Of a stretch of 64,000 nucleotides of DNA, positions 1,082-61,146 are shown piece after piece. The stretch covers positions 1,798,001 to 1,862,000 of the forward strand of contig NZ_CP035926.1 of the NCBI RefSeq assembly GCF_004214815.1, written 5' to 3'. Origin of the DNA: Aliarcobacter thereius LMG 24486. Lineage in GTDB: Bacteria; Campylobacterota; Campylobacteria; Campylobacterales; Arcobacteraceae. Below the pieces are notes generated by a model. The model had not been told where the DNA came from and ran no database searches. It worked only from the letters and a program-made list of their open reading frames with translations. Both the position numbers and the translations under genes were made by a program. The stretch's first letter is position 1. Each line of letters starts with the position of its first letter.

Positions 1082-2110
1082 TTAAAACATTTCCAATCTA
1101 TCACCAAATTTATAATCTTTTTTAGAAACCTTCCCAATAATATCGTTTAAATATTTAGGATGAAGCCCATACCCTGGTCTTACACTTCGTATATTATCAG
1201 TATTAAATATTTCTCCTTTTTTTATATCTTTTGATATATATAGACTTCTTGCAAAACGACGCTGTTTTGTTCTTTTTTCATTTAAACTATATTCTACTTT
1301 TCCTAACAACTTTTCACTATCTCTAACAGCTTTTATCATATCTTCAAACTCTTTTTTATCTAAAGAAAAATCAGCATCTGCTCCACCTATACTTTTATCA
1401 ATAATAAAATGTTTCTCTATAATCTTTGCTCCTAAAGTAACTGCAACAACTGGTGCAATATGTCCCATAGTATGATCAGAAAAACCAACTTCTACACCAA
1501 ATGTTTCCTTCATATTTTGTATTGTTTTTAAATTTGCTTCTTCTAGCTTTGCTGGATATTCACTTGTACATTTTAAAAGAATAATATCTTCATTTCCAAC
1601 ACTTTTACAAATATTCACAACATCTTGTATCTCATCAATAGTTGCAATACCTGTACTTATAATTATTGGTTTTCCTTTACTTGCTGTATATTTTACAAGT
1701 TCATAATCTGTTATTTCAAAAGATGCAATTTTATAAGCACTTGGATTAAATTGTTCAAGAAAATCAACTGCACTTTTATCGAAAGGTGTTGAGAAAATAT
1801 CTATATCTAAACTTCTTGCATAATCAAAAAGTTCTTTATGCCACTCCCAAGGAGTATATGCTTCTTCATAAAGTTCATAAAGATTTTTTCCATCCCAAAG
1901 TGTTCCACCACTTATCATAAAATCTTCATTATTACTATTTATAGTCATTGTATCAGCACGATATGTTTGAAGTTTTATTGCATTTGCCCCAATTTCCTTT
2001 GCAGCTTTTATAGTCTCTTTTGCTACCTCTAAACTTCCATTGTGATTTGCACTTAACTCTGCAATTATATAAGTTCCATCTTTATTTAAATCAAATTTTC
2101 CTATCTTCAT
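1082..2110 (-). CDS. pseI: Pseudaminic acid synthase PseI
   Basis: Condenses 2,4-diacetamido-2,4,6-trideoxy-L-altrose with phosphoenolpyruvate to give pseudaminic acid in the cytoplasm. The 342 residues match the usual family length of about 343. An N-terminal NeuB barrel begins with IIAELSANHNGS and includes EKHFIIDKSIGGADADFS, a typical NeuB/PseI signature; a C-terminal SAF (antifreeze-like) domain occupies about residues 280-342. The start codon lies inside the end of pseH (20 base overlap), which implies translational coupling. The pse context separates it from the related sialic and legionaminic acid synthases. Confidence 0.95.
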   Translation of the reverse strand: MKIGKFDLNKDGTYIIAELSANHNGSLEVAKETIKAAKEIGANAIKLQTYRADTMTINSNNEDFMISGGTLWDGKNLYELYEEAYTPWEWHKELFDYARSLDIDIFSTPFDKSAVDFLEQFNPSAYKIASFEITDYELVKYTASKGKPIIISTGIATIDEIQDVVNICKSVGNEDIILLKCTSEYPAKLEEANLKTIQNMKETFGVEVGFSDHTMGHIAPVVAVTLGAKIIEKHFIIDKSIGGADADFSLDKKEFEDMIKAVRDSEKLLGKVEYSLNEKRTKQRRFARSLYISKDIKKGEIFNTDNIRSVRPGYGLHPKYLNDIIGKVSKKDYKFGDRLEMF

Positions 2111-2705
2111 TTTTTAACTCCATACAAATTACATTTATATTATTAACAATTTTTCTATCTACTTCTTTAAATTTATATTTTTTATGTAGATTTATAACCT
2201 TGATATTATTTTCAAATATCTCTAATTTTAGTCTATTTACCTTTAATACATCAAAAGCAAATTTTATTGATGTTTCTTCTAATACTCTTCCTATTCCTGA
2301 AACTGAATTAGGATTTCCATAAAAACCAAAATATGAAAACTCACTATTTATATCAACAAAATAAATTACACCTAAATTATCTCCATCTTTTTTTAATAGA
2401 AAATATAATTTATCTTTATTTATTTTTAAATTTTCAATAAAATTCAAATGTTCTTCTAGTTTTATAATATGTTGATTGTACATCCATTTTCTAACTTCTG
2501 GATTATTTCTCCATTCTAAAATTAGATTATTTTCTTCTAAGCTTAAATCTATAAAATCATGAAGAGTTATACTTTTCCCTTCATCTAGTTCAATTTTTAG
2601 TATATATTTAGTACCATCTACTTCAAAAAATTCTGGATGATTTTCATTATCTATAATTCTCAATAAATTAAATTGTTCTTTTGATGTTGATATTACTTTT
2701 TTCAT
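2091..2705 (-). CDS. pseH: UDP-4-amino-4,6-dideoxy-N-acetyl-beta-L-altrosamine N-acetyltransferase PseH
   Basis: A GNAT-fold acetyltransferase that acetylates the 4-amino group made by PseC, using acetyl-CoA. The typical PseH sequence starts near residue 43 with an ILEWRNNPEVRKWMYN segment and continues through SGIGRVLEE (acetyl-CoA loop) and FENNIKVINLHKKYKF. The first 40 or so residues are extra compared with the Campylobacter enzyme as I recall it, and there is no later Met before residue 75, so the extension appears real. The gene sits between pseG and pseI and overlaps pseI by 20 bases. Confidence 0.88.
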   Translation of the reverse strand: MKKVISTSKEQFNLLRIIDNENHPEFFEVDGTKYILKIELDEGKSITLHDFIDLSLEENNLILEWRNNPEVRKWMYNQHIIKLEEHLNFIENLKINKDKLYFLLKKDGDNLGVIYFVDINSEFSYFGFYGNPNSVSGIGRVLEETSIKFAFDVLKVNRLKLEIFENNIKVINLHKKYKFKEVDRKIVNNINVICMELKNEDRKI

Positions 2706-2728
2706 ATAAATTTACCTTTTAATCATTT

Positions 2729-3673
2729 TTAAACTTTATACTTTTCATTTTCTACACCTAAGATTTTATCTATACCTTTTTCCAACTCTTTTTTATTAAA
2801 GCTTCTCAAAGTTTTATATCCATCTTTTACTATATATTTATACATATATTTTTGATTTTTAGCTGTTTTTATAGCAATAAAAGGAATATCTAAATAAAAA
2901 ACTTCATTTAAAGTAACACTTGGAGTAACTATTGCTAAATCACTTTTAATCATATAATTAGCAATTCTTCTTGAATTAATATGTAAATTTATCCATTTCT
3001 TACTTTTACAATATTTATTTAATTGTTTTAGATTTTTATTTGCATTTGTAGTAAAAAGATTTACTACTATTTTTTCTTTATTCTTTTTTCTAAATTTCTT
3101 AATTATTTTTAAAATTTTTATATTTTTATTTGTATGGTCAGCTCCACCCATAGCTACAAAAATAGTTTTTATTTTCTTATTTTTTTTTATTTTTTTTGTT
3201 TGTTTTTTAGCTTCTAAAAATTCTTCTCTTAAAAGTGTGTATTTACTTCCACATCTTAATTCACAATTATTTGGTACTAGATTTTTATATCTTTTTTCAT
3301 CTGCATAAATATTATGATTTAATAAAATATCACAATAATGTTTTTCATAAGTATCGTCAAACACAAATATTTTTAAACTTGGATTTAACTCTTTTAATTT
3401 TTTCTCAAAATTATAATTTATTTCATAACTATCAATTATTATCATATCGATATTTAATTTTTTAATTAACTCGTTTAATTTATCAAAACTATTTGATTTT
3501 AGAAGTTCTATTTTATAACCTGCTTCAATAATTTTGTGATTTATATTTCCATCTAAATTTTCTGTAGCAAAAATAATATTATCATTTAAATATTGTTTTG
3601 CTAAAACCAAATCTCTCATAATATGCCCCGTTCCAATATATGAGGATGAATTGGCTCTTATTAAAATATTCAT
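2729..3673 (-). CDS. pseG: UDP-2,4-diacetamido-2,4,6-trideoxy-beta-L-altropyranose hydrolase PseG
   Basis: Removes UDP from the bis-acetamido sugar to give the free sugar used by PseI. The 314 residues have the glycosyltransferase-B fold pattern of the family. GTGHIMR at residues 14-20 contains His17, equivalent to the catalytic His of the Campylobacter enzyme, and a nucleotide-binding segment lies near TPSVTLNEVFYLDIPFI. The start is one base after the pseF stop. The middle is very rich in Lys and Asn, in line with the low GC content of the genome. Confidence 0.92.
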   Translation of the reverse strand: MNILIRANSSSYIGTGHIMRDLVLAKQYLNDNIIFATENLDGNINHKIIEAGYKIELLKSNSFDKLNELIKKLNIDMIIIDSYEINYNFEKKLKELNPSLKIFVFDDTYEKHYCDILLNHNIYADEKRYKNLVPNNCELRCGSKYTLLREEFLEAKKQTKKIKKNKKIKTIFVAMGGADHTNKNIKILKIIKKFRKKNKEKIVVNLFTTNANKNLKQLNKYCKSKKWINLHINSRRIANYMIKSDLAIVTPSVTLNEVFYLDIPFIAIKTAKNQKYMYKYIVKDGYKTLRSFNKKELEKGIDKILGVENEKYKV

Positions 3674-38792: not shown

Positions 38793-39407
38793 GTGTTTAC
38801 AGGACTTATAAGAGAGATGGCAAAAGTTGTTAATTTCTCAAACAATATTTTAACTCTACAAGCAAATTATTCCCCAAAGATTGGGGATTCTATTGCAGTA
38901 AATGGGGCTTGTTTAACTGTAATAAAAATTTCAAATGATACTTTTAGTGTTGAGTTATCTCCTGAAAGTACAAACTTACTTGCTTTAGAAAATTATAAGA
39001 ATTTTGTACATATAGAACCAGCTATGCAAATGGGTGATAGATTTGAAGGACATATTGTTCAAGGACATATTGATTGTCTTGGAATTATTGAAAAGATAGA
39101 AAAAAAAGGGAACTCAACAGATTTTTATATAAAAGTACCAAATGAGTTTATAAAATATATGATAAGCAAAGGAAGCGTAGCAATAGATGGAATATCTTTA
39201 ACTATAAATGAAGTATTTAAAGACTCTTTTAGACTTACAATAATTCCTCATACAATAGAAAATACACTTTTCAAAAACTATAAAGTAAACTCAAGAGTAA
39301 ATGTAGAAACTGATATGTTTGCAAGATATATTTTTAATATGTTTAAGAAAAATGATAAAGATAATTTAACTTGGGAAAGTGTAGATAGAATAATGGCTAA
39401 TTATTAG
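38793..39407 (+). CDS. ribE: Riboflavin synthase alpha chain
   Basis: Dismutates two lumazines to riboflavin. The 204 residues hold two lumazine-binding repeats: MFTGLI…, SIAVNGACLTV and GHIVQGHID in the first, and SVAIDGISLTIN and IIPHTIENT in the second. The start is GTG at 38793. It faces the convergent mgtE. Confidence 0.95.
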   Translation: MFTGLIREMAKVVNFSNNILTLQANYSPKIGDSIAVNGACLTVIKISNDTFSVELSPESTNLLALENYKNFVHIEPAMQMGDRFEGHIVQGHIDCLGIIEKIEKKGNSTDFYIKVPNEFIKYMISKGSVAIDGISLTINEVFKDSFRLTIIPHTIENTLFKNYKVNSRVNVETDMFARYIFNMFKKNDKDNLTWESVDRIMANY

Positions 39408-39423
39408 CCATTATCTAAAGAAT

Positions 39424-40803
39424 TTATGGTGTTGGTAAATCAAGAATTGCAGTTGCAATAGAGAAGAATATTACAACACCTATTGCATCTGCAATTGAAG
39501 TTATCAAAGGTGCACTAGCTGATGCAGGATCTAGTTTAAACTTACTTAATAAAAACGGTAAAGACATTCCAATTATACTTCCTACTATTACCACAAGAAC
39601 CATCGTTAAAGATACAATTAAAGCAATATCATATCCACCTCTATAAATACCTATAAAAGATACAGCTAAAGCCATAGTAAACCCAAGTAAACTTGCAACA
39701 ACAAGCTCTTTTCCTAGCATTCCAGCCCAATCTTTTAGTTTAACATCTCCAGTTGCTAAAGCTCTTACCATAAGTGTTGCTGATTGTGAACCAGCATTTC
39801 CTCCACTATCTACAAGTAATGGCAAGAAGAATACAAGTGCAATATATGCAGAAATTGTATCTTCAAAATATGCTATTCCTGCACCTGAGAATATATTACC
39901 AAAAACTAAAATAACAAGCCAAAAAACTCTTTTTTTATAAAGTGTTGAAATTGTTGCTTCTTTTATATTTGTTAAAAACCCTACATTTCCATGTTTACTT
40001 ACTTCAACACTTGTACCACTCATTTTTTGGAAATCTTCTTCTGCTTCTTCAATAGCAACATCTATAACATCATCATAAGTGATTATTCCCACAAGAATAT
40101 TATTCTCATCTACAACAGGAGCAATAAGTAAATCATAATCTTGAATTACTTTAACACAAAATTCTACTGGATCACTAGCTTTTAAAGAGATAGGATTCTT
40201 TCTCATAAAATCTTCTATTAGACTATCTGGTTCTGCCATAATTATAGATTTTAAAGATACACTTCCTAATAACTCTCTATTTTCATTTATTACAAATGTT
40301 TCATAAATAGTTTCAATATCTCCAGCAATCTTTCTTAGATAAGAAATTGACTCTAAAGCATTCATATTGGCTTTTAAAGTAGCATAATTTGATGTCATAA
40401 TTGAACCAATAACATTCTCTTCATATGATGATAATTTTATTATGTCTTCTTGCTCAGCTTTAGTTAAAATAGGCAAAATTCTATCTTGTAGAGTTTCCGT
40501 CATTATGTTAAATAAATCGGCTCTTTCATCACTTGGCATCTTTTCAAAAAGCTCTTTTATCATTGTTCTATCCATAAAATCAAGGATAATTAACTGCATT
40601 CGTTCATCTAAGTATCCAAATAACTCTGAACTATTTTTAAGTGGCATCAAAGATATAAAAGTAAAAATTTCTTGTGGTTTTAACTCTTCAAAAGCTTCTT
40701 TTAAATCTACTGGATATGTATGGTGTAATATTTTTACAATCTCTTTTTTACTTCTAGTTTCTATAACATTATGTATGCTAGAAATTAATTCTTTTTTATT
40801 CAT
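39424..40803 (-). CDS. mgtE: Magnesium transporter MgtE
   Basis: A gated Mg2+ channel of the inner membrane. The 459 residues comprise an N-terminal helical domain (1-130), two CBS domains (about 135-255; LIAPVVDENNILVGIITYDDVID) and five C-terminal membrane helices with the pore segments DSGGNAGSQSATLMVRALATG and a final ISLTMVL… region. Mg2+ binding between the CBS and N domains closes the channel. Its upstream region is unusual (see the leader ORF and inverted repeat). Confidence 0.95.
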   Translation of the reverse strand: MNKKELISSIHNVIETRSKKEIVKILHHTYPVDLKEAFEELKPQEIFTFISLMPLKNSSELFGYLDERMQLIILDFMDRTMIKELFEKMPSDERADLFNIMTETLQDRILPILTKAEQEDIIKLSSYEENVIGSIMTSNYATLKANMNALESISYLRKIAGDIETIYETFVINENRELLGSVSLKSIIMAEPDSLIEDFMRKNPISLKASDPVEFCVKVIQDYDLLIAPVVDENNILVGIITYDDVIDVAIEEAEEDFQKMSGTSVEVSKHGNVGFLTNIKEATISTLYKKRVFWLVILVFGNIFSGAGIAYFEDTISAYIALVFFLPLLVDSGGNAGSQSATLMVRALATGDVKLKDWAGMLGKELVVASLLGFTMALAVSFIGIYRGGYDIALIVSLTMVLVVIVGSIIGMSLPFLLSKFKLDPASASAPLITSIADAIGVVIFFSIATAILDLPTP

Positions 40804-40845
40804 ATTTTACTCCCTATATGTTTACATAATTTACAATAGTTAAGT

Positions 40846-40851
40846 ATTATA
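40846..40851 (-). promoter_or_regulatory. Possible mgtE-proximal -10 box
   Basis: TATAAT on the minus strand, 42 bases before the mgtE ATG. If used, it would make mgtE partly independent of the upstream leader ORF. Confidence 0.4.
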
Positions 40852-40921
40852 TTGATTACAATCTACAATTAAGATTTTAGGATTATCATACAAAACTATC
40901 AACATTGGCTTAAACAATTTA

Positions 40922-41012
40922 CATGAAGTTTTAATGACTTATAAGATTTTTAAGGTTTATATTAATATTTTAAATACTCAAGTTTATATTAATCATAAAA
41001 TAAAACTTCATG
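40922..41012 (-). repeat. Inverted repeat in the mgtE upstream region
   Basis: Perfect 12 base arms (CATGAAGTTTTA at 40922-40933 and its complement at 41001-41012), 67 bases apart. The upstream arm lies inside the small leader ORF. A 12 base direct repeat (GTTTATATTAAT at 40955-40966 and 40982-40993) lies between the arms. In RNA from the minus strand the arms can pair, which would fold the end of the small ORF. Confidence 0.6.
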
Positions 41013-41041
41013 AATCTACTCTGACTACTATCTGAATCCAT
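40970..41041 (-). CDS. Small ORF, 23 aa, candidate leader peptide upstream of mgtE
   Basis: Begins ATG at 41041 with AAAAGGAG (41047-41054) five bases upstream, among the strongest ribosome binding sites in the window, and stops at TAA 40970. The peptide starts MDSDSSQSRFMKF and is otherwise hydrophobic and Asn-rich. It lies 166 bases before mgtE and 74 bases after mreC, on the same strand. The acidic start followed by a basic segment recalls MgtL, the leader peptide of the Mg2+ transporter gene mgtA in enteric bacteria, but this is an analogy only. Confidence 0.5.
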   Translation of the reverse strand: MDSDSSQSRFMKFYFMININLSI

Positions 41042-41115
41042 TTCCGCTCCTTTTATGAAATATTTAATTTTGCCGTAGTTTAGAAAAATATTTCTTAATT
41101 TTTAATTAATAGATT

Positions 41116-41880
41116 TTACTCATTTATAGTTTGATATGTATAAAAATATCTTTTTGTAAGTGGTTTTGCATAGGGCTCAATATATGCCACTTTCATATCT
41201 GGATACTCTTTTATATCAACCACCTTACCTACTCTTACGCCCTCATAAAAGATATTATCAAGACCTGAAGTTATAACTTCATCACCAAGTTTTACTTTTG
41301 CCCAAATAGGTATAAATTTAACAGACAATAATCTTTCATCACTATCATTTGACATCACAATTCCAGAATTCCTATCATTCCCTACAAAAACAGCATAAGA
41401 ACAATCTTTATTTCCATTTAGTAAACCTACACTTTTACCTTGCTTATTTAAAGCAATTCCAGCAGCATAGTTTTCTGATATAAGTCCTACAATCTCATCA
41501 TCTAATTTTTTATCTATCCAAACTGTTGTAAAATCATCAAATTTTACATATGATAAAACTCTTACTATATCAATTTTTGCATTTATACTAGGAAGTTCCA
41601 CATTTAACAAAAATTCTCGCAAAGAGTCTATTTTTGAGGTTGTAGATTCATACAAAATTTTGTACTCTTTTAAGCGTAAGTTCTCTTCTTGTAATTTCTT
41701 TATAAGTTCTTCATGAGAAAAATGATCTTTAACTTTTTGTGATAATTCTATATAACTATTTAAATAAGATTTTTTTATCTCTGCAAAAAATCTAAACTGT
41801 TTTGAAATATATTCATCTATTTCAAATAAGTATAGTAATCCTGCAAAGATAAATAGAGATAAAAAAAGAAATCTTTTCAT
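41116..41880 (-). CDS. mreC: Cell shape protein MreC
   Basis: A bitopic protein of the elongasome. The 254 residues begin with a membrane segment (2-20), then a coiled coil (about 55-95) and the periplasmic beta-domain (100-250) with GLISENYAAGIALNKQGKSVG and the GDEVITSGLDNIFYEGVRVGKV segment. It follows mreB by 7 bases. The operon order fabZ-lpxA-clpX-mreB-mreC is the same as in Campylobacter. Confidence 0.94.
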   Translation of the reverse strand: MKRFLFLSLFIFAGLLYLFEIDEYISKQFRFFAEIKKSYLNSYIELSQKVKDHFSHEELIKKLQEENLRLKEYKILYESTTSKIDSLREFLLNVELPSINAKIDIVRVLSYVKFDDFTTVWIDKKLDDEIVGLISENYAAGIALNKQGKSVGLLNGNKDCSYAVFVGNDRNSGIVMSNDSDERLLSVKFIPIWAKVKLGDEVITSGLDNIFYEGVRVGKVVDIKEYPDMKVAYIEPYAKPLTKRYFYTYQTINE

Positions 41881-41887
41881 CTAATTT

Positions 41888-42925
41888 CTAATTTTTCATC
41901 TCTTCAATAATTTTTAGTAATTCTGGTTCATCAAGAACTTGACTAGTTCCATATGCAACAGAAAGTAATGGTTCATCTGCAATCTTTACAGGTATTTTAA
42001 CAATTTCAGATAGATATTTATCTATTCCTCTAATTAATGCTCCACCACCTGTTATTATAATTCCATTATCAACAACATCTCCTGCTAAATCTGGTGGCAT
42101 ATTTTCTAATACACTTCTAATTGCTGAAGCAATTTCTTTCAGTGGTTCTTTTATTGCAATTCTAACACCTTCACTACCTAATTCAATAGTAGAAAGATAA
42201 CCTGAATGATCTTTTCCTTTTATTTGGAATTTTAATTCAGGATCAAGTTTTGAAGCAGCACCAATAGCTATTTTAATATTTTCGGCTGTTCTTTCTCCTA
42301 TAAAAAGATTATAGTTTTGTCTTACATACTCAACAATTGATCTATCAATTTTATCTCCACCAACTTTAACTGATTTACATAAAACCAATCCTCCTAAAGA
42401 AGTAACACCAATTTCAGTTGTTCCTCCTCCAATATCAACAACAACATGTCCATCTGGATCAGAAACAGGTATTCCAGCTCCAATAGCAGCTGCCATTGGC
42501 TCTTCTACTAAGAAAACTTCTCTAGCTCCTGCACTCATAGCTGACTCTTCAACTGCTTTTCTTTCAACTTGTGTAATTCCATAAGGAATACAGATAATTA
42601 CTCTTGGTCTAATAAATGATTTTCTTGAGTGTGCTTTCTCTATAAAGTATCTAATCATTCTTTCAGTCATTTCAAAATCAGCAATAACTCCATCTTGCAT
42701 TGGTCTTACTGCTTGAATATTTAAAGGAGTCTTTCCAAGCATTCTCTTTGCTTCTTGACCAACTGCTAAAATTCTATCTTTCCCTTGTCTATCAACTTGA
42801 ACAGCTACAACTGAAGGTTCATTGATGATTACCCCTTTTCCTTTAACACTAACAATAGTATTAGCAGTTCCTAAATCTATTGCCATATCATTTGAAAATA
42901 TTCCTATTAACTTATCTAAAATCAT
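41888..42925 (-). CDS. mreB: Rod shape-determining protein MreB
   Basis: Bacterial actin that guides lateral wall synthesis. The 345 residues contain the phosphate-1 loop AIDLGTANTIV, phosphate-2 VVVDIGGGTTEIGV and adenosine motif IIITGGGALIRG. It starts 4 bases after clpX and leads into mreC. Confidence 0.97.
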   Translation of the reverse strand: MILDKLIGIFSNDMAIDLGTANTIVSVKGKGVIINEPSVVAVQVDRQGKDRILAVGQEAKRMLGKTPLNIQAVRPMQDGVIADFEMTERMIRYFIEKAHSRKSFIRPRVIICIPYGITQVERKAVEESAMSAGAREVFLVEEPMAAAIGAGIPVSDPDGHVVVDIGGGTTEIGVTSLGGLVLCKSVKVGGDKIDRSIVEYVRQNYNLFIGERTAENIKIAIGAASKLDPELKFQIKGKDHSGYLSTIELGSEGVRIAIKEPLKEIASAIRSVLENMPPDLAGDVVDNGIIITGGGALIRGIDKYLSEIVKIPVKIADEPLLSVAYGTSQVLDEPELLKIIEEMKN

Positions 42926-60177: not shown

Positions 60178-61146
60178 TTATATCCACTTATTTCTTTTAA
60201 ATAATAAAAACTGAAAAACAACAACGAAAAGCAAAATCACACTAAATATTAAAAAAGCATTTTCATTTGATGAACCAGGAATTCCACCTACATTTATTCC
60301 CAAAAGTCCTGTCAAAAAAGTAAGTGGTAAAAATGTTGCTGATATGATTGCTAACATATACATCTTTTTATTTATATCTTCACTTAAACGATTTCTTAGC
60401 TCTTCTTGTATTAGAATTACTTTATCACGAATTGTATCAAGCTCCTCAATATGTCTTATTAATTGATCATTTGTCTCTCTTATTTCAACTCTTTGATACT
60501 CATCTATCCAAGATATTTTCTCATTTGAAAGTTTAATTAGTGCCTCTTTTTGAGGAGATAGATATCTTTTTAGAACAATAGATTCTCTTCTTATTTTTAA
60601 TATCTCATTTCTAAATTCAAGACTTTTCATATCTATTATATTTTCTTCTAAATAATCTGTCCTATCTTGTATTTGCTCGATAGTATCATCCATTCTATCA
60701 ATCATTTTATATGTAAGTTCTACTAAAAATTGAGAAGAACTTTTAACCCCAATTCCATTTTTAAGCTCATCAATTATCTCTTCAACTGATAAAATCATCT
60801 CTTTACTTGTAGATATAATAAGATTTTCTGAAATATAAAGCCTAATTGATTTCATATCTTCTGGATTTGCATCTGCATCAAGATTTACTCCTCTTAAAGA
60901 TAGAAGTAAATTATCTTTTAAAACTATCATTCTAGGTCTTGTTTCATCTGCTAAAAGTGCATCAACTGCTACATCTTCTATTTCACTTCTATTTGTTATC
61001 CAATCTATTGCATCATCTTTTGTATAATCAAAATGTAACCACAAAAGATTTTCACTATTTTTATATTCGCTTATCTCTTCAAAAACTATCTCTTTTGCAT
61101 AAGACTTTCTATCTAATACAAAGCCTCTAAATGATTTTATCTGCAT
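60178..61146 (-). CDS. zntB: CorA/ZntB-type divalent metal transporter
   Basis: A 322-residue protein: a large cytoplasmic domain (1-255, with a long helix near 190-250) and two C-terminal membrane helices. The pore motif is GIN (FLTGLLGINVGGIPG) rather than the GMN of CorA, and it ends KRNKWI; both are closer to ZntB, a zinc transporter. Metal choice cannot be decided by reading. Confidence 0.82.
   Translation of the reverse strand: MQIKSFRGFVLDRKSYAKEIVFEEISEYKNSENLLWLHFDYTKDDAIDWITNRSEIEDVAVDALLADETRPRMIVLKDNLLLSLRGVNLDADANPEDMKSIRLYISENLIISTSKEMILSVEEIIDELKNGIGVKSSSQFLVELTYKMIDRMDDTIEQIQDRTDYLEENIIDMKSLEFRNEILKIRRESIVLKRYLSPQKEALIKLSNEKISWIDEYQRVEIRETNDQLIRHIEELDTIRDKVILIQEELRNRLSEDINKKMYMLAIISATFLPLTFLTGLLGINVGGIPGSSNENAFLIFSVILLFVVVFQFLLFKRNKWI

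What the first reader, a model, noticed from the sequence alone, without database searches (positions are those of the whole stretch)
40846..41054. Possible leader peptide and attenuator upstream of mgtE
A 23-codon ORF with a strong ribosome binding site sits 166 bases before mgtE. Perfect 12 base arms place one arm inside the ORF and the other downstream of it, so ribosome progress could decide whether the hairpin forms. The peptide begins MDSDSS then turns basic, similar in style to enteric MgtL, where Mg2+-dependent ribosome instability at an acidic start controls mgtA. A direct repeat lies between the arms. A TATAAT nearer to mgtE could bypass it.
Basis: partly seen in the sequence, partly recalled or inferred. 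Interest (0 to 1): 0.6.

Follow-up and report, generated by a model that had tools for sequence, protein, structure and literature searches.

The report
Ribosome-sensing leader switch before mgtE
A tiny gene in front of a magnesium-transporter gene appears to act as a ribosome-position sensor, because an RNA strand can pair either with the tiny gene or with the transporter's ribosome-binding site, and this layout is kept in four related bacterial species.

Summary
On the minus strand, the 23-codon ORF (41041-40970, AAGGAG ribosome site) and a ~310-nt leader precede an orthologous mgtE in 4 of 31 genus genomes, in three upstream gene contexts. Both 12-nt arms are invariant in all four; ORF and arm blocks change far less than mgtE four-fold sites. 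The hairpin extends to 12+6 pairs in 4 of 4. In a folding model a ribosome at codons 1-5 lets the arms pair and frees the mgtE site; at codons 8-17 the 3' arm closes it (pairing probability 0.00-0.27 versus 0.55-0.98, 4 of 4). Shuffled arms reach the observed change in Shine-Dalgarno exposure in 1 of 240. Best reading: a translational attenuator built like Salmonella mgtQ-mgtB, on another transporter family. No terminator-like site or Rfam RNA was found in the leader. Open: Mg2+ sensing, translation of the ORF, and bypass by the proximal TATAAT. There is no covariation in the arms, and whole-leader folding energy is ordinary.

The parts
41077..41112 (-). block A, promoter-like start of the conserved unit (CTATTAATTAAAAATTAAG...TATTTTTCTAAACT; TAAACT at 41082-41077)
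   Evidence: 32 of 36 columns invariant in four genomes; similarity begins here although the upstream genes differ; that it is a promoter is inference
41051..41058 (-). region 1: UCAUAAAA, pairs with UUUUAUGA (41000-40993) in hairpin H0, which also pairs the leader AUGGAU (41041-41036) with AUUCAU (41015-41010)
   Evidence: 8 pairs kept in 4 of 4, one A-U to G-U change in G015; fold shown; H0 probability 0.79-0.95 before the 3' arm is made
41047..41052 (-). leader Shine-Dalgarno AAGGAG
   Evidence: GGAG invariant in four genomes
40970..41041 (-). 23-codon leader ORF MDSDSSQSRFMKFYFMININLSI, Asp2 and Asp4
   Evidence: open and same length in 4 of 4; Ser5 to Gly and Asn20 to Ile in G012
41001..41012 (-). 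region 2: 5' arm CATGAAGTTTTA inside the ORF; stem continues with ATGATT at 40996-40991
   Evidence: 12+6 pairs kept in 4 of 4
40922..40933 (-). region 3: 3' arm TAAAACTTCATG; stem continues with AGTCAT at 40939-40934
   Evidence: the 12 bases are invariant in four genomes
40918..40929 (-). anti-Shine-Dalgarno ACUUCAUGUAAA (overlaps the 3' arm); UCAU at 40937-40934 can pair with the mgtE start AUGA
   Evidence: windows overlapping it are the best complement of the mgtE start region in each of four leaders; pairing
40809..40820 (-). region 4: mgtE Shine-Dalgarno region CATATAGGGAGT, partner of the anti-Shine-Dalgarno
   Evidence: first 10 pairs: 9, 9, 10 and 10 formed in own, G015, G014, G012; pairs 11-12 fail in own and G015 and pair 12 in G012
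40835..40900 (-). spacer hairpin S2: GATAGTT (40900-40894) with AACTATT (40841-40835), GTATGATA with TATAATAC
   Evidence: 55 of 56 pair cells are standard pairs, G-U counted, one break in G014; fold of this stretch is not significant alone (z -0.94)
40846..40851 (-). proximal TATAAT, possible internal promoter that would bypass the leader
   Evidence: sequence; TATAGT in G012; function untested
39424..40803 (-). mgtE, Mg2+ transporter, 459 aa
   Evidence: TIGR00400 352 bits; Pfam MgtE_N, CBS, MgtE
39390..39414 (-). inverted repeat ATAATGGCTAA/TTAGCCATTAT just after the mgtE stop, the other end of the conserved unit
   Evidence: a like repeat follows mgtE in all four genomes (window); not scored as a terminator by the scan

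Best explanation
The region is the leader of a long mgtE transcript and works as a uORF-controlled translational attenuator. Shown in the sequence: four segments can pair as 1:2 (H0, which ties up the leader start codon), 2:3 (the 12+6-bp stem S1) and 3:4 (the 3' arm on the mgtE Shine-Dalgarno, with UCAU able to reach the start codon, S3); S1 and S3 exclude each other, and all three are possible in four species. Inferred: a ribosome held or lost at codons 1-5, at Asp2/Asp4, breaks H0 and leaves region 2 free, so S1 forms and mgtE is translated (ON). Ribosomes moving through codons 8-17 cover region 2, region 3 pairs with the mgtE start site and mgtE is OFF. Inferred one step further, by analogy with MgtL and MgtQ: low Mg2+ destabilises ribosomes at the early acidic codons and so turns mgtE on.
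For: Association: the full leader is in 4 of 104 family genomes; these are the 4 of 31 genus genomes with this mgtE at 85-100% identity. Constraint: the ORF/arm blocks B1+C (Shine-Dalgarno to codon 17, plus 3' arm) differ at 2 of 85 columns (own-G014) and 4 of 85 (own-G012), against 42/144 and 36/139 at mgtE four-fold sites; binomial 1.4e-10 and 2.7e-7, or 1.3e-4 and 4.1e-4 with the lowest rates tried. S1: 18 pairs in 4 of 4. S3: 85.4% of cells pair, against 25-50% in slid registers. Ribosome-block model: S3 0.00-0.27 for codons 1-5, 0.55-0.98 for codons 8-17, in 4 of 4 genomes and three footprints. Null arms that keep S1: 1 of 240 reach the observed mean change in Shine-Dalgarno exposure, 2 of 240 the duplex energy. 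Background: of 247 gene starts, 5 have an 11-bp or longer repeat whose 3' arm pairs with the start region at -7 kcal/mol or better: 3 are mgtE, 1 reads the same repeat from the other strand, 1 is unrelated. Strong ribosome site. Acidic residues at both 2 and 4: 0 of 51 window ORFs, present in the leader in 4 of 4.
Against: The 12-bp arms never vary, so they give no covariation; the shuffle control on S3 has no power (500 of 500 equal). Folding energy is ordinary (z 0.12; alignment z -0.94 to -1.43). In G012 the change in Shine-Dalgarno exposure at codon 3 is small (0.20 versus 0.17); exposure of the mgtE start codon does not rise in G014 (0.16-0.17 against 0.14-0.21); a wider start-region measure is reached by 14 of 240 null arms. 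The ribosome-free full-length state is mostly H0+S3 in own and G015 but S1 in G014 and G012, and a ribosome at the stop codon leaves own closed, G015 mixed, G014 and G012 open. Four sequences only, in two close pairs. A promoter-like TATAAT lies downstream of both arms. Two acidic residues without proline may be a weak destabilising motif, and no EttA above the family cut-off was found. Peptide-level selection is not shown: changes in the ORF are too few.
Confidence: 0.58

Rival explanations
1. Structured leader without a role for the peptide: a Mg2+-sensing RNA in which H0/S1/S3 exchange with ion binding, and the ORF is incidental or serves only as RNA sequence.
For: Constraint is at nucleotide level: among four genomes the first 17 codons show no synonymous change and one amino-acid change. 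S1 and S3 need no ribosome in themselves.
Against: AAGGAG at close spacing and an intact 23-codon frame with acidic codons 2 and 4 in all four. No known aptamer: no Rfam match in the leader at gathering score, and only a nematode snoRNA at E 9.8 in the permissive scan. Fold energies are not unusual.
Confidence: 0.2
2. The ORF block is its own small gene or small RNA, and mgtE is transcribed from the proximal TATAAT (40851-40846) without the leader.
For: Block D2 around the TATAAT is conserved (37 of 39 columns). An RNA that starts near 40840 would still have a Shine-Dalgarno.
Against: Both changes in D2 fall in or next to the TATAAT, in G012 (TATAGT). It leaves the invariant 3' arm and its match to the mgtE start site unexplained. 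In the genomes searched the ORF was not found without mgtE.
Confidence: 0.15
3. Transcription attenuation (Rho-dependent, as for mgtA/corA in enteric bacteria, or intrinsic).
For: corL and mgtL leaders are reported to act this way in Salmonella (PMC11552253, passages), with the same logic that efficient leader translation turns the transporter off.
Against: No terminator-like site in 40600-41900. The leader is poor in C, unlike known Rho sites (recalled). The 3' arm fits the mgtE start site instead.
Confidence: 0.1
4. Recent transfer: the leader looks conserved only because the mgtE unit spread recently, and the pairings are chance.
For: mgtE is a recombination mosaic and its own-G014 four-fold divergence (0.29) is below that of most neighbours; chance inverted repeats of this length occur in 10 of 400 shuffles.
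Against: The leader blocks are less diverged than mgtE four-fold and third positions from the same unit, and the least conserved parts include the loop between the arms (3 of 11 columns invariant).
Confidence: 0.1

Closest known systems
[quoted passage not shown] outline and passages read)
   Same: Short ORF behind a strong Shine-Dalgarno; acidic codons at the start (Asp2, Glu5 there; Asp2, Asp4 here); alternative stems 1:2, 2:3, 3:4 with the transporter's ribosome site in 3:4; a ribosome on region 1 favours 2:3 and opens the site; acts on a Mg2+ transporter.
   Different: 8 codons against 23; inside an operon against a 5' leader with its own promoter-like block; MgtB against MgtE; region 2 lies inside the ORF here, so passage of the ribosome itself closes the site; different bacterial group; shown by experiment there, predicted here.
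MgtL leader of mgtA (PMC11282234 and PMC11552253, passages read)
   Same: Leader peptide with acidic residues at 2 and 4; poor leader translation gives transporter expression.
   Different: MgtL has EPDP with prolines and is described as acting on transcription elongation; here no proline, and the target is the mgtE start site.
M-box riboswitch (ykoK, a MgtE-type gene), including the translational M-box of mycobacteria (PMC12810186, passages read)
   Same: Leader of Mg2+-related genes; in mycobacteria an anti-Shine-Dalgarno exchange of the same logic.
   Different: No M-box match here.
mgtE motif of Thioalkalivibrio (PMC11109978, passages read)
   Same: Proposed leader RNA that includes the mgtE Shine-Dalgarno and start codon.
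   Different: Reported from Thioalkalivibrio alone as a riboswitch candidate; no sequence comparison was made here.
erm-type translational attenuators (recalled; abstracts seen in the listing)
   Same: Ribosome on a leader ORF decides whether a downstream start site is freed.
   Different: Signal is a drug-stalled ribosome; unrelated gene.

Membership tests
mgtQ-type uORF translational attenuator | short ORF with strong Shine-Dalgarno upstream of a Mg2+ transporter gene | tested here: met
   kept in 4 of 4
mgtQ-type uORF translational attenuator | alternative stems 1:2, 2:3, 3:4 with the transporter Shine-Dalgarno in 3:4 | tested here: met
   possible by sequence and folding model in four genomes; not probed, no covariation in the arms
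mgtQ-type uORF translational attenuator | early acidic codons cause ribosome destabilisation | tested here: inconclusive
   Asp2 and Asp4 present in 4 of 4; the effect cannot be tested here
mgtQ-type uORF translational attenuator | descent from mgtQ | not tested
   different gene and length; treated as working like mgtQ, not as a homologue
MgtL | proline/acidic leader peptide upstream of mgtA | tested here: not met
   no proline, and the gene is mgtE
MgtL | Rho-dependent control of transcription | not testable with these tools
   no transcript data
M-box riboswitch RF00380 | covariance-model match | tested here: not met
   no match in the leader at gathering score or at E up to 10 in 40750-41160
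intrinsic-terminator attenuator (trp/leu type) | terminator hairpin between leader ORF and gene | tested here: not met
   0 terminator-like sites in 40600-41900

The most novel reading that the evidence does not exclude
A ribosome-stability Mg2+ sensor of the mgtQ/mgtL logic has arisen separately outside the enteric bacteria, in front of the MgtE family, with region 2 inside the ORF so that the ribosome's own progress reads both states: early loss or stalling opens mgtE and passage through the ORF closes it.
Probability: 0.4. Interest if true: 0.72.

Novelty: new variant of a known kind. Interest (0 to 1): 0.57.

Why it matters
If true, control of a Mg2+ transporter through the stability of a ribosome on a leader ORF is not an enteric peculiarity, and it reaches the MgtE family. 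It would be a compact, testable case: one strand has two exclusive partners, so few changes separate ribosome position from RNA structure.

Tried and rejected
Rejected: M-box or any Rfam RNA in the leader; terminator; a wider family of the element: a covariance model over 31 genus genomes gave the four known leaders plus two weak hits, G004 (E 0.005) and G028 (E 0.05); the first lies inside a coding frame, the second across the end of one coding frame and the gap before the next, and neither was followed further. No match in plasmids, and no exact match of a 33-base ORF pattern in viral contigs. Other mgtE genes: in a sample of 398 genomes of the order 6 match at E<=1e-60, four of them these; G196 (58% identity) has a coding frame that ends just before mgtE, and G403 (42%) showed no such leader by eye nor to the model. 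The family genomes outside the genus were searched with the leader DNA, but with the mgtE protein only as far as the order sample reached. The genome-contig scan returned 13 distant mgtE only; the tool says near genomes may be left out. Of the 39 of 104 family genomes with some DNA match, 35 have only short pieces of 50 bits or less and were not counted. Rows G015 and G012 of the alignment and row G015 were misplaced; redone. In the start-site background G015 mgtE was missed, probably because the script chose an earlier ATG. EttA was sought and not found above cut-off, though weaker ABC-F-like matches were; one bL31 is present.

Full report
What is there. All coordinates are on the minus strand. 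A 23-codon ORF (41041-40970, MDSDSSQSRFMKFYFMININLSI) lies between a gene that looks like mreC (name recalled; stop at 41116) and mgtE (start 40803), 166 bases before mgtE. It has AAGGAG five bases before its ATG. In the 64-kb window four ATGs on the two strands have AAGGAG at 4-9 bases; of their ORFs only this one and a 185-aa gene reach 20 codons. The arms CATGAAGTTTTA (41012-41001) and TAAAACTTCATG (40933-40922) are perfect. On the single sequence this is mildly unusual: 10 of 400 dinucleotide shuffles have such a repeat, 2 of 60 such a duplex; the whole leader folds no better than shuffles (z 0.12). mgtE is secure (TIGR00400, 352 bits).

Conservation. Searching the 312 nt upstream of mgtE over 104 family genomes gave four full matches (100, 95, 92 and 90% identity; own, G015, G014, G012) and 35 genomes with short pieces of at most 50 bits. 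These four are the only ones of 31 genus genomes with this mgtE at 85-100% identity, and a 28-base ORF pattern with up to three mismatches finds only them (4 of 31). In own and G015 the unit follows the mreC-like gene. In G014 it lies between a ribE-like gene plus an SBF-family (weakly ACR3-like) transporter gene and an mnmG-like gene, in G012 between the ribE-like and mnmG-like genes. Despite this, similarity begins at the same place about 70 nt before the ORF and ends after an inverted repeat behind mgtE.

Constraint. mgtE is a recombination mosaic, so its own synonymous sites are the fairest clock. Four-fold sites differ at 42/144 (own-G014), 36/139 (own-G012) and 18/161 (G014-G012). The block from the leader Shine-Dalgarno through codon 17, plus the 3' arm, differs at 2, 4 and 2 of 85 columns. 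The binomial probabilities at those rates are 1.4e-10, 2.7e-7 and 2.8e-3; with local third-position rates of the first mgtE codons they are at most 1.3e-4, 4.1e-4 and 5.4e-5. Own-G015 is not informative in this way, because intergenic regions between them are 88-100% identical anyway. Five own-G014 intergenic controls are 58-81% identical (three more could not be aligned), with the leader at 92%. The loop between the arms is among the most variable parts (3 of 11 columns invariant). No synonymous change occurs in the first 17 codons, which points to constraint on RNA as well as, or rather than, on peptide.

Three helices. (i) H0, regions 1:2: UCAUAAAA (41058-41051) with UUUUAUGA (41000-40993), and leader AUGGAU with AUUCAU. 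(iii) S3, regions 3:4: ACUUCAUGUA of the 3' arm with the mgtE Shine-Dalgarno; of the first ten pairs 9, 9, 10 and 10 are formed in own, G015, G014, G012, and UCAU pairs with the mgtE start AUGA in the fold with a ribosome at codon 12 in all four. Slid registers pair 25-50% of cells against 85.4%; the shuffle control there has no power. Windows that overlap the 3' arm are the best complement of the mgtE start region in each of the four leaders. Region 3 therefore has two partners, which would explain why it is invariant.

Ribosome model. With a ribosome footprint made unpairable, S3 has probability 0.00-0.27 when the P site is at codons 1-5 and 0.55-0.98 at codons 8-17, in all four genomes and for three footprints; Shine-Dalgarno exposure is 0.31-0.55 against 0.12-0.24. 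Weak points: in G012 at codon 3 exposure is 0.20 against 0.17, and in G014 exposure of the start codon itself does not rise. When the arms are replaced by shuffled arms that keep S1, the mean change in Shine-Dalgarno exposure reaches the observed one in 1 of 240 and the duplex energy in 2 of 240; a wider start-region measure is reached in 14 of 240. This measure was chosen after the effect was seen. As the RNA grows, H0 forms first, S1 replaces it once the 3' arm is made, and S3 becomes possible last. Without a ribosome the full-length state is mostly H0+S3 in own and G015 but S1 in G014 and G012, so the default state is not predicted consistently. Among 247 gene starts in the window and fetched stretches, 17 have an 11-bp or longer repeat and five of these a 3' arm that pairs with the start region at -7 kcal/mol or better: three mgtE, one gene that reads the same repeat from the other strand, one unrelated; the fourth mgtE was missed.

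Mechanism. The layout is that of Salmonella mgtQ-mgtB: stems 1:2 and 3:4 against 2:3, transporter ribosome site in 3:4, strong leader Shine-Dalgarno, acidic codons 2 and 5 that destabilise the ribosome (PMC8092293, outline and passages). Here the acidic codons are 2 and 4, as in MgtL, where they also matter (PMC11282234 passages). None of 51 window ORFs has acidic residues at both positions. I therefore propose: ribosome held or lost at codons 1-5, S1 forms, mgtE on; ribosomes passing codons 8-17, S3 forms, mgtE off. The possible pairings and the conservation are shown; translation of the ORF, regulation and Mg2+ as signal are inferred. One bL31 gene is present; no EttA above the family cut-off.

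Limits. The 12-bp arms do not vary, so they give no covariation; alignment folding z-scores are -0.94 to -1.43. Four sequences from one genus are few. A TATAAT (40851-40846) inside the leader could start a shorter mRNA; it is TATAGT in G012. The model leaves out pseudoknots, kinetics and Mg2+.

Literature. Searches for mgtE with leader peptide, with Arcobacter or with uORF, for Campylobacter leader peptides, and for magnesium with translation attenuation or uORF listed no report of such a leader in this group (open-licence PubMed Central only; 15 of 51 papers were listed, and most were seen as listings). A structured-RNA survey that included Arcobacter sp. L leaves most of its remaining Arcobacter candidates unnamed, and its supplement was not read (PMC6429828, passages). 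The mgtE motif in PMC11109978 is from Thioalkalivibrio (passages).

Noticed in passing
window 39424-40803 and L082, L083, L084: mgtE is a recombination mosaic among the four species: own and G015 have 0 of 40 third-position differences at codons 201-240 but 13 of 19 at codons 441-459, where own is close to G014 (2 of 19).
   Followed up: partly
window 38793-41880; L083 2353-5945; L084 3766-6486: The mgtE unit sits on different sides of a ribE-like gene: before it in own and G015, after it in G014 and G012, suggesting separate insertions or a local rearrangement.
   Followed up: partly
L083 2962-3930 minus: In G014 an SBF-family transporter gene is divergent from the mgtE leader; read from the other strand the same inverted repeat pairs with its start region at -8.3 kcal/mol.
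   Followed up: no
window, gene starting at about 36753 minus: Beyond the mnmG-like gene own has a gene starting MSEEQKKILEQQLWNIANALRGKMDADEFRDYILGF (looks like a type I restriction methylase, name recalled); the G015 stretch shows another gene at that place, and the window ORFs between 25919 and 36831 gave no accepted match in the fetched G015 stretches.
   Followed up: no
window 1082-3673: Three neighbouring ORFs have no four-fold differences from G015 (0 of 109, 0 of 43, 0 of 63) while the ORF before them has 17 of 34 and later ones up to 30%, a sign of recent exchange.
   Followed up: no
window 60193-61053 minus: A CorA-family gene lies in the window and a second one elsewhere in the genome, so mgtE is an accessory Mg2+ route; 30 of 31 genus genomes have a CorA match.
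   Followed up: partly
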